Assembly: GCA_023159155.1 (NCBI GenBank)
Contig: JAJNNX010000027.1
Location: 1-64,000 of the forward strand
Source of the DNA: Ustulina deusta
Lineage: Eukaryota; Ascomycota; Sordariomycetes; Xylariales; Xylariaceae
Direction: 5' to 3'
Length of the DNA stretch: 64,000 bases
Position numbers and translations under genes: made by a program. The notes under the pieces were generated by a model. It had not been told where the DNA came from and did not search any database. It saw only the letters and a list, made by a program, of their open reading frames with translations. Each line of letters begins with the position of its first letter. Within the stretch, counting starts at the first letter, position 1. Of this stretch, positions 15,645 to 28,036 are shown piece by piece.

Positions 15645-18600
15645 TTAAGGCCCCCCATGGTTTCTTCCAATAATAGGCAACACCATTTTCCCTGAGCCCT
15701 CCTGGAATGCGATAAAGAAGTTGTGCACCAGCGGGTTCATCCCCTGCGAGACTGCATCTGTTAGCCATTCCCCCATCTCAATCTCACGTAAACCTTCTCC
15801 AGCCAGGTTTTCGAGGTATGCTTTAAGCTCTTCGTGGGGGACTTTCACATCGCTGCAATGGTTTAGGAAACGAGCGCCGGAACTCGGTTGTGTCTGATCC
15901 TGGGGCGAATCATTACCCAATTGGCAGCTGACCGCAGAATCTAGGACGGACGCAATTATATCTTTGGTTGTATCCTGCACTGTCACAAAATCCCACTGGC
16001 CAATGATGTCCTCTGGGTCAATCCGAGGCAATGCGCGTAGCAACAGTGAGTACTTGGTCAGCATGCCTATTGCATCAAGCTCCGATGCGTCGTCGCCGAC
16101 AACATGCGCTAGGCGGTGAACGTACGCCGGCAGTTCGTTGCCCATCGCTACCCTATTTAGAAGCATCTCGCTGACCCATTTAGAGGCCGCATAGCCATCA
16201 ACAGAGTTTAATAATTCGGGAACAGCAGGCGATGGGGCAACTTCGAGAAGAGGTTCATCAGAATTTAGCTCAATAACCTTGGCTACGGATGCCGTCGATA
16301 TGTAGTGCACAGGCACGCGGCGTGGGATGGCCATCTCGCAAAGCTTGCGCGTTGAGAGGACGTTGGCGCGGCGAAGCGACCGGTAGGTTTTCAGTAATGA
16401 CACATCCGCACCGTTGTGAATAATGGCATGGGCACTCTCGGCTAAAGAGACGAACTCTGAGTCTGAGAGCCCGAGACTGAGAGTCGAGAGGTCACCAATG
16501 TGCTCAATGATTTTCTTGCTCTTTAACGAGATACGGCGTGGTTTACCTGAGCCATCTGGCCGTATTGATAGACAATGTACTCGAGCCACTCTTGGATCTT
16601 GAATGAGACGTGACAATAAATGCCTCCCAATAAATCCAGTTGCACCCGTCAAAACAATTGTAAGACCCCCTTTTCCGTTCAAAAGCTTTTGGTTGAACAT
16701 GGAGGCTCTGGGACTAGACTGGGGGAGACCGTCAATTATGCTTGCAATCTCAAGGTCCCAGTTAATCATTTGCTGAGGCCCTCCAGGTTTCAAAAAAGAG
16801 GCCGTTGTCGGTGCCGTGGAAGTCTCTTTGGTACGTAAAGTAGTGGTTTGGAGGAGAGTGGCCATGTCTCTTAAAGTGCTAGAATGGAAAAGGTCAGGCA
16901 TGGAAATTATGACACCGAACTGGACCTCAAGGAGAGTTTTAAGTTTGATCATCAAAATGGAATTACCACCAATCTCAAAGAAATCTGAGGCTGGCTGAAT
17001 CAGCGTGGTGTTGCCTTGAGATATAAGGGCAGTCTGGGTTGAGAGAGCCTCTTCCCATACTTCTTTCATTGATTGCTCCCACGATGTAAAACCATGGTTG
17101 AGATGCCCATTGGTGCTCGTACCCGCTGATTCTGGGATGGACAATTGGTCAATAGCGCCCCTATCAGTCTTCCCATTGGGAGTAGCCGGAATCCGCTCGA
17201 TCGGAACTATGAATCTTGGCTTCATGATTGGAGGAAGTGGGAGGTTGGATTTGAGCCACTTCACGAAATCAGACTTATTCTGAGTAAAGGCGTTCTCAAA
17301 TACGATGAAAGCAACCAAGGTGCCCGAGAGATGGCTGGGTCGCCAGGAAACAGCAGCATTGACCACCGCACCGTTGCTCACGTGAACGATAGCGTTGGCA
17401 ATTTCGTCTAGCTCAACACGAAAGCCGTGAATTTTGACTTGCCCATCTCCGTCCAGCCGTCCTAACACCTTGAGCGTGCCATCCGGCAGAAGCCTGCCCT
17501 CGTCCCCTGAGCGATAAATTCTACTGAATCCAGGTGGCGACATGGCAGACTCTCTATGAATGAACTTTTTGTCTGATTCCTCGGGTCTGCCGAGATACCC
17601 AAGACCAACGCCTTGCCCTGAAATGCAGATTTCACCAGGAAACCCGATGGGCAACATGTTCATGTCCGCATCCACGATTTCCAGCCCATAGTTTGGCGAG
17701 GGACGAAGGTAGTCGCTATAGCTATCCTGGTCATCACGTAGCTTCTGATAGGGAACAATACCCCTGGCGCAGGCTAACGTTATCTCGGCTGGTCCATAAA
17801 CGTTGACGAGATTTAAGCCACCACAGTCAAGCTTTCGGAAGGCTCTGCGCAACTCCCAGCCCAGCTTCTCCCCCCCTGACATGGCATAACGCCAAGAACT
17901 AGCGTCCTTGAGAATATGTTGTCCATAGTTGAGCAGCGCTAAGTACTCTGATGGCACAAAGTGCGTCAGGGTGACTCTGTGCCTAACCATGAGGTCGGCC
18001 ATGTGCGTTGGATCACCTCGCCCGGTTTTTCCCACCATGACAACCGTTCCGCCGTTGCATAGTGCCAGAAATATCTGGTCTAGCATCAAGTCGAAACCCA
18101 GCGGACTTTGCTGCAGTGTCGTCTCACGCCCGAGGCGAAGAGTAGAAGTTGTTCCAAATATTTGATTTGTCAGGCCGTCGTGTGTCAGAACTACACCCTT
18201 CGGCACACCAGTGGAACCACTCGTGTATAGAATCATAGCAGGTTGATTGTTTCTTTTGACTTTCCCAGTCCCGTTGCTCTGTGGTATAAACGCCCTCTTC
18301 TTGTCCTCGTCCTCGCACTCAGTATCATTCATATCCATTTTATCAATATTGAAAATTCTTATGGCCTCAATGTCTGCAGCGATGTGCTGCGCCAGCTGCA
18401 TCGTCGCATTGTGGCAGACTAGAACCTCGGGACGGCTTTCCTCGACGACCGCGCGAAGTCGCTGTTGATGATTCCGCGTGTCCAGAGGTATCCAGACTAC
18501 ACCCAACCGCAGGACCGCGAGAATACAACAAATGGCGTCCGCGACGGGGTCAATAAGCACTGCCACATTTGAGCCACCAGCTAGTTGAGGTGAACCCTCT

Positions 18601-27600: not shown

Positions 27601-28036
27601 CCCGTTGATGAGCCGCTGAGCTGTGAGATGGAGTATCCAGCAGATTCTATGGCCTCGTAGACTACCTCTAAGATTACTCGCTGCTGCGGGTCCATTGATT
27701 CAGCTTCTCTGGCACTGATGCTGAAGAAATCATTATCAAATGCTAGAGGGTCATCTTCTAGAAGATAGGCCTTGGTTACGTTGGCCGTCTATGATATATC
27801 AGCCAGCTGTAGCTAAAATTTGAGAATATCTCACAACTACTCACTCCGGGATGCTCGGGGTTTTCATGATAGAATGCGGTAGGGTTGTACCGGGTATGTG
27901 GGATCTCGGCCAGGAGATCCACGGGATGCTTCAGGAGTTCCCATAGCTTGCTCGGAGAGTTCGCACGACCAGGTAACCGACAACTTGTGCCAATTATGGC
28001 AATAGGTTCAATTGTGCTGTTTTTAATCTCCTCCAT
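15645..28036 (-). CDS. Hybrid PKS-NRPS (KS-AT-DH-MT-KR-ACP-C-A-T-R)
   Basis: Five exons (27845-28036, 27312-27788, 26950-27250, 26546-26890, 15645-26497), joined in phase by GT-AG introns of 48-61 bp, encode about 4055 aa. KS carries C182 in DTACSSS, H321 in EAHGTG and H368 in GHTEG. AT has GHSSG (S648). DH has H980 and D1154, but the usual HxxxG is HxxxN. The C-methyltransferase has a LEVGAGTGG SAM site (1429-1437). About 1620-2090 shows no enoyl-reductase motif. KR has GLTGDVG (2123-2129) and Y2262. ACP serine is 2436. The condensation domain has HHIALDG (2699-2705); adenylation has YTSGSTG near 3200 and K3548; thiolation serine is 3618. The terminal reductase has GATGFIG (3723-3729) and Y3874/K3878. 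The enzyme should make a methylated polyketide amide of one amino acid, released reductively or by cyclisation. No frame break was seen. Confidence 0.93.

What the first reader, a model, noticed from the sequence alone, without database searches (positions are those of the whole stretch)
15645..28036. Intact 4055-aa PKS-NRPS in a nearly bare cluster
All catalytic motifs except an enoyl reductase are present, and a continuous reading frame covers 12 kb, indicating functional constraint. Unlike cytochalasan or tenellin-type clusters, I see no trans-ER, hydrolase, Diels-Alderase or regulator nearby; the only intact neighbours are an EthD protein and an exporter. The product may therefore be a highly unsaturated or otherwise unfamiliar polyketide-amino acid.
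Basis: partly seen in the sequence, partly recalled or inferred. Interest (0 to 1): 0.75.

Follow-up and report, generated by a model that had tools for sequence, protein, structure and literature searches.

The report
Conserved three-gene fungal PKS-NRPS cassette
A wood-decay fungus carries an intact giant enzyme predicted to join a polyketide chain to an amino acid, and its two small neighbours, which looked like leftovers, often travel with it in other fungi as an uncharacterised three-gene unit.

Summary
Confirmed: an intact five-exon gene, 28036..15645 (-), encodes a 4055-aa PKS-NRPS (KS-AT-DH-CMeT-KR-ACP-C-A-T-R, no ER domain). The contig matches Ustulina deusta; the deposited protein is identical except that its gene model drops 12 residues that the other 43 aligned relatives keep. 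A LovC-like probe found no trans-ER on the contig. The left contig end is 15.6 kb away, so genes beyond it cannot be excluded.

Reinterpreted: the cluster is small rather than stripped. Relatives of the EthD neighbour share a contig with 16 of 46 close relatives of the synthase and 0 of 73 more distant ones; exporter relatives with 18 of 46 and 6 of 73. Three genomes number all three genes within five locus tags. In Botrytis cinerea the EthD and exporter tags precede Bcpks7, product unknown. The adenylation pocket varies only at two positions in that set, suggesting one conserved amino acid.

The EthD protein is predicted to fold like CTB10 and, less closely, olivetolic acid cyclase. My reading, inferred: it acts on the released product, possibly replacing the alpha/beta-hydrolase of pyrrolinone clusters. 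Clusters without trans-ER are already known.

The parts
15645..28036 (-). PKS-NRPS gene, exons 28036-27845, 27788-27312, 27250-26950, 26890-26546, 26497-15645; 4055 aa
   Evidence: Spliced translation without internal stop; Pfam; deposited homologs
26472..28006 (-). KS domain (residues about 11-447; edges approximate)
   Evidence: Pfam on two exon pieces; C182, H321, H368; map
25170..26147 (-). AT domain
   Evidence: PF00698; S648
24072..24968 (-). DH domain
   Evidence: PF21089 and PF14765; H980, D1154
23223..23528 (-). C-methyltransferase core
   Evidence: PF08242; motif I
21465..22232 (-). Stretch before the KR with no Pfam match, where an ER would lie in fully reducing synthases
   Evidence: No ER family among the 22 listed; position
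20940..21461 (-). KR domain
   Evidence: PF08659; Y2262
20367..20552 (-). ACP
   Evidence: PF23297 weak; S2436
18810..20096 (-). Condensation domain
   Evidence: PF00668; HHxxxDG
17592..18707 (-). Adenylation domain, pocket code read as DLDHASVLAK
   Evidence: PF00501; code
16851..17000 (-). Carrier (T) domain
   Evidence: PF00550; S3618
16050..16658 (-). Terminal R domain with intact SDR residues
   Evidence: PF07993; S3839, Y3874, K3878
28037..29008 (.). 972-bp intergenic stretch between divergent synthase and EthD genes, possible shared promoter (inference)
   Evidence: Coordinates
29009..29477 (+). EthD protein gene, exons 29009-29155 and 29211-29477, 137 aa
   Evidence: PF07110 on exon 1 ORF; spliced translation; 112 homologs
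30399..32157 (-). MFS exporter gene, exons 32157-32062 and 32006-30399, 567 aa
   Evidence: PF07690; identical to P0233
9810..11209 (-). P450 remnant, frame change and premature stop; possible former tailoring gene
   Evidence: PF00067 on two pieces; three frames shown apart

Best explanation
This is the Ustulina deusta copy of an uncharacterised, widespread three-gene cassette: a PKS-NRPS without ER, an EthD protein and an MFS exporter. The synthase builds a C-methylated, ketoreduced and dehydrated chain that stays unsaturated because no ER acts, couples it to one amino acid that is the same throughout the family, and releases it from the terminal R domain. The EthD protein, predicted to have the dimeric alpha/beta-barrel (DABB) subunit fold, then acts on the released product, most likely as a cofactor-free cyclase, dehydratase or isomerase, and the exporter removes the product. 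Shown by computation: intact synthase, conserved linkage, conserved pocket code, predicted fold. Inferred: chain pattern, amino acid, kind of release, the EthD reaction, and export.
Against: 20 of 46 near relatives had neither gene on the same contig in the lists, some on long contigs (P0003 224 kb, P0004 772 kb); in X. bambusicola the EthD lies on another contig than the synthase and exporter. The window's own EthD was missing from the EthD list too, so annotation gaps explain some misses but I cannot say how many. Shared contig is not adjacency on Mb contigs. Common descent alone could give part of the distance correlation. The fold shows no reaction. The two Talaromyces synthases in the set (P0016, P0025) matched the exporter only.
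Confidence: 0.55

Rival explanations
1. An ordinary tetramic-acid hybrid: the terminal domain closes the ring by Dieckmann condensation, neither ER nor hydrolase is needed, the product is a polyenoyl tetramic acid as in the fusaridione clade, and EthD does only a late or accessory step.
For: In Minami et al. clades lacking the Knoevenagel hydrolase make tetramic acids, and the fusaridione clade lacks trans-ER as well. No FrsA-like hydrolase on this contig (2 in the genome, on C46 and C47).
Against: Depositors' automatic labels point to PsoA and fusarin synthetase, which belong to the pyrrolinone clade, weak. The R-domain Ser-Tyr-Lys set is intact in 44 of 44 relatives, but Minami et al. found no residue that separates the two release types, so this is not decisive.
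Confidence: 0.35
2. A partly decayed cluster: tailoring genes were lost (the P450) or lie elsewhere, and an unclustered trans-ER serves the synthase in trans.
For: Broken P450 about 4.4 kb from the synthase's 3' end. LovC-like matches far from KS matches exist on C66, C92, C36, C97 and C58. The contig ends 15.6 kb away and its first 8 kb have 4-12% GC.
Against: The synthase, EthD and exporter are all intact and the same small set recurs in relatives. I could not test whether relatives have an intact P450 or trans-ER beside their copies.
Confidence: 0.13
3. The U. deusta copy makes pseurotin or a fusarin, as the deposited labels suggest.
For: Deposited names hybrid PKS-NRPS PsoA and Fusarin C synthetase among relatives; PsoA is the best solved match over the whole length (2348 bits).
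Against: 36.8% (A) and 35.6% (R) identity to PsoA, with 41 and 58 of the other 108 sequences compared ranking above the query. PsoA pocket code, read by eye, is DAYTAVAICK, unlike DLDHASVLAK. Hydrolase, methyltransferase and P450 partners of those clades not seen intact here.
Confidence: 0.04

Closest known systems
PsoA, pseurotin PKS-NRPS (PDB 9x29; Minami clade II-D)
   Same: Same domain order over the whole length, no trans-ER in its clade.
   Different: About 36-37% identity in A and R, different pocket code, its clade has a Knoevenagel hydrolase and P450; here EthD and exporter.
Fusarin synthetase and fusarin clade II-A
   Same: No trans-ER in the clade; depositors label two relatives with this name.
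   Different: Clade has hydrolase, methyltransferase and P450; sequence of FUS1 itself not compared here.
Fusaridione clade Ib-D
   Same: No trans-ER, no Knoevenagel hydrolase, no key tailoring enzyme (table).
   Different: EthD partner not mentioned there; synthase sequence not compared here.
Bcpks7 of Botrytis cinerea
   Same: Hybrid of unknown product (PMC9920419, passages) whose locus tag follows homologs of this exporter and EthD.
   Different: Its sequence was not seen; membership is inferred from gene order. One paper reports it only in B. cinerea among the Botrytis species compared (PMC6417074, passage).
CTB10 (cercosporin pathway EthD-type protein)
   Different: 19% identity; partner of a non-reducing PKS pathway, said to contribute to methylenedioxy bridge formation (PMC9808054, passage).
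Olivetolic acid cyclase (OAC)
   Different: 12-14% identity; many other DABB proteins score about the same Z.

Membership tests
Fungal PKS-NRPS hybrid synthase | KS-AT-DH-CMeT-KR-ACP followed by C-A-T-R in one protein | tested here: met
Pseurotin or fusarin clades (Minami II-D, II-A) | Synthase groups with PsoA or FUS1 | tested here: inconclusive
   Only PsoA A and R domains compared, 36-37% identity, many listed proteins closer to PsoA than the query; FUS1 not available; no tree with both
Pseurotin or fusarin clades (Minami II-D, II-A) | Knoevenagel alpha/beta-hydrolase in the cluster | tested here: not met
   No FrsA-like match on C44; that FrsA is the right family is recalled; Hydrolase_4 at 61.4 kb is 33 kb away; left contig end not covered
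Cytochalasan or tenellin type clusters | trans-ER in the cluster | tested here: not met
   No LovC-like match on C44 at E 1e-3; probe matches LovC
Tetramic-acid hybrids (Minami clade I) | Dieckmann release | not testable with these tools
   Minami et al. found no residues diagnostic of it
EthD / DABB proteins | EthD family match and ferredoxin-like barrel subunit | tested here: met
   PF07110 and precomputed on full-length homologs; model and matches of P0121
DABB polyketide cyclases such as OAC | Ring closure of a released polyketide | not testable with these tools
   Fold shared only

The most novel reading that the evidence does not exclude
The EthD protein is a new kind of ring-closing partner for PKS-NRPS release: the R domain gives an aldehyde, and this DABB protein, in place of the usual alpha/beta-hydrolase, performs the Knoevenagel-type closure or a diverting dehydration, defining a separate three-gene pathway found across several fungal classes.
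Probability: 0.25. Interest if true: 0.78.

Novelty: new variant of a known kind. Interest (0 to 1): 0.5.

Why it matters
One synthase, one small enzyme and one pump would be a very small PKS-NRPS pathway, and it recurs in saprotrophic and plant-associated fungi, probably including Botrytis cinerea. It is small enough to rebuild and would test directly what decides the fate of the released product when neither a trans-ER nor the usual hydrolase is present. It also gives EthD proteins, described in one paper I looked into only as putative decarboxylases (PMC4591646, passages), a new setting in which to find their reaction.

Tried and rejected
Pseurotin or fusarin orthology from the deposited names: not supported by identity to PsoA. 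Decay as the reason for the small gene set: kept only as a rival after the linkage counts. Reading the amino acid from the pocket code: H at 278 and S at 301 recall the serine code (recalled, from no call), too weak to claim. Placement in a tree with FUS1, PsoA, equisetin and tenellin synthases: not done; the three protein searches went to the synthase, the EthD and the exporter, and xenE was the only listed hit with a characterised-enzyme name. The own-genome search for C-A-T-R paralogs did not complete; the AT-DH part found no other match above 40% identity except a 90-residue piece at 50%. Literature: EthD with hybrid synthase terms (20 papers, 15 listed; 3 papers) and dimeric alpha-beta barrel with PKS-NRPS (1 paper): nothing listed describes such a pair, but only open papers are held and I opened only PMC4591646 of these for EthD. 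Supplementary tables of PMC7421883, which give partner genes of its 11 unnamed groups, could not be read, so this family may already be one of those groups. In the VIA list the DABB rows below CTB10 are tied within about 1.5 Z units, so OAC is not singled out.

Full report
What is there. The window is G000 C44:1-64000; C44 has 615,358 bases, the length given for the contig of the deposited Ustulina deusta protein P0001, a species of Xylariaceae. The gene at 28036..15645 (-) has five exons and encodes 4055 residues without a stop. Pfam on its pieces gives KS, AT, DH, methyltransferase, KR, carrier, C, A and R families and no ER. The active-site letters checked are present and mostly conserved in relatives.

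Surroundings. Divergent from the synthase, 972 bp away, is an EthD gene (29009-29477, one intron), then a convergent MFS exporter (32157-30399, one intron), both intact. No U. deusta EthD protein appears among the 112 homologs, so it is probably unannotated. Toward the contig end lie a 2EXR protein and a P450 remnant, then about 8 kb at 4-12% GC. Beyond the exporter are two fungal-rhodopsin-domain genes, an NLR-type gene, a mannosyltransferase, an EXS protein and a Pex2/Pex12-domain protein. 28 sequence references were scanned, not every ORF; the 10 kb to the right of the window were listed as ORFs but not searched for domains.

Missing partners. A 380-aa gene next to a KS-bearing gene on C60 matches LovC (E 9e-73) and was the probe: 26 matches in the genome, none on C44. 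Those on C60, C59, C47, C1, C100 and C55 lie within about 7 kb of KS matches; those on C66, C92, C36, C97 and C58 do not. An alcohol-dehydrogenase-like frame at C44:150895 was not matched by the probe. FrsA-like hydrolases: two in the genome, C46 and C47, the latter about 17-19 kb from a KS and a trans-ER match. So such partners can be found in this assembly, and none was found near this synthase, with the reserve of the contig end 15.6 kb away.

Relatives. The search with the long exon found 2126 proteins, of which 120 are listed. Over aligned columns identity is 84-80% in three Xylaria, 54-70% in P0005-P0042, about 50% in P0043-P0046, and 36-50% below (the 108 longest of 120). In a FastTree of 108 sequences and 3454 columns the query joins P0002-P0004 (drawn without support values). 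The names PsoA and Fusarin C synthetase are depositors' labels. PsoA itself (PDB 9x29) is 36.8% identical in A and 35.6% in R; 41 and 58 of the other 108 sequences rank above the query against it.

A conserved trio. The protein lists carry contig lengths and locus tags, which I compared by script after copying the numbers. Among P0001-P0046, EthD relatives share a contig length with 16 of 46 and exporter relatives with 18 of 46; either 26, both 8, neither 20. Among P0047-P0120 with a contig length (73; P0106 has none), EthD 0 and exporter 6. Fisher values are 3.7e-8 and 9.5e-5, but rows are related, so they overstate independence. The first count used a cut at P0042 (16 of 42 against 0 of 77); the cut at P0046 was chosen afterwards from the fall in identity. 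Two of the 16 rest on EthD fragments only (P0038, P0040). The exporter list is the best 120 of 1470. Tags show neighbourhood in Xylaria grammica, X. curta and Parahypoxylon. In Botrytis cinerea the exporter BCIN_10g00020 and EthD BCIN_10g00030 precede Bcpks7, Bcin10g00040, a hybrid of unknown product (PMC9920419, passages); its sequence was not seen. Ciborinia, Stachybotrys and Apiospora have EthD and exporter at consecutive tags. Distances among EthD copies follow those among synthases (r 0.65, 13 pairs plus the window; three fragmentary or partial pairs left out), exporters likewise (r 0.80, 8 plus the window). Against: in X. bambusicola the EthD is on another contig, both Talaromyces synthases matched the exporter only, and long contigs such as P0003 and P0004 matched neither.

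One amino acid. The ten pocket positions, set by eye against PheA numbering (recalled) through the alignment, read DLDHASVLAK in the query. Among 44 listed members and the window copy (same gene as P0001): 31 DLDHASVLAK, 9 DLDHASVVAK, 4 DLDHASVIAK, 1 DLDHASVLSK. Among the 64 others codes vary; P0051, just outside the cut and with an exporter relative on its contig, also has DLDHASVIAK.

Mechanism and rivals. In Minami et al. (Results read in full) release gives either a tetramic acid by Dieckmann closure or an aldehyde that a hydrolase turns into a pyrrolinone, and absence of the hydrolase goes with the first. A polyenoyl tetramic acid is therefore a serious rival. The depositors' labels and the intact reductase residues lean to the second route, weakly, since those authors found no diagnostic residues; on that route the EthD protein is the obvious candidate for the missing closure. 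A tree with reference synthases, which I could not build, would separate these.

Verdict. Observation confirmed. Interpretation corrected: a small, conserved, uncharacterised gene set rather than a stripped one. Moderately interesting, more so if the EthD role is shown.

Noticed in passing
window 1-8000: Contig end with 4-12% GC and a raised TA/AT ratio of 1.22 with (CA+TG)/(AC+GT) of 0.32, as expected of heavily RIP-mutated repeat DNA (RIP indices recalled).
   Followed up: partly
window 9810-11209 (-): P450 remnant near the synthase, broken by a frame change and at least one premature stop.
   Followed up: partly
window 40357-44937 (+): NLR-type gene (NACHT_N, NPHP3_N, WD40) in three overlapping frames with 126-129-bp WD repeats 69-74% alike; introns or frame changes between the frames not settled.
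   Followed up: partly
window 33591-34148 (+) and 38457-38918 (+): Two genes with fungal rhodopsin domain (Pth11-like, recalled) side by side.
   Followed up: no
window 22545-22580 (-), P0001: The deposited synthase model removes 12 residues that the other 43 of 44 aligned relatives keep, and no U. deusta EthD protein is among the 112 homologs listed.
   Followed up: yes
G000 C92:4583, C122:11207, C122:33182; C73:386499 and C95:198361: KS matches with identical scores at several places, suggesting recent duplication or duplicated assembly.
   Followed up: no
P0016, P0025: Talaromyces synthases sit among Xylariales and other sequences in the tree, which could mean horizontal transfer; not tested.
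   Followed up: no
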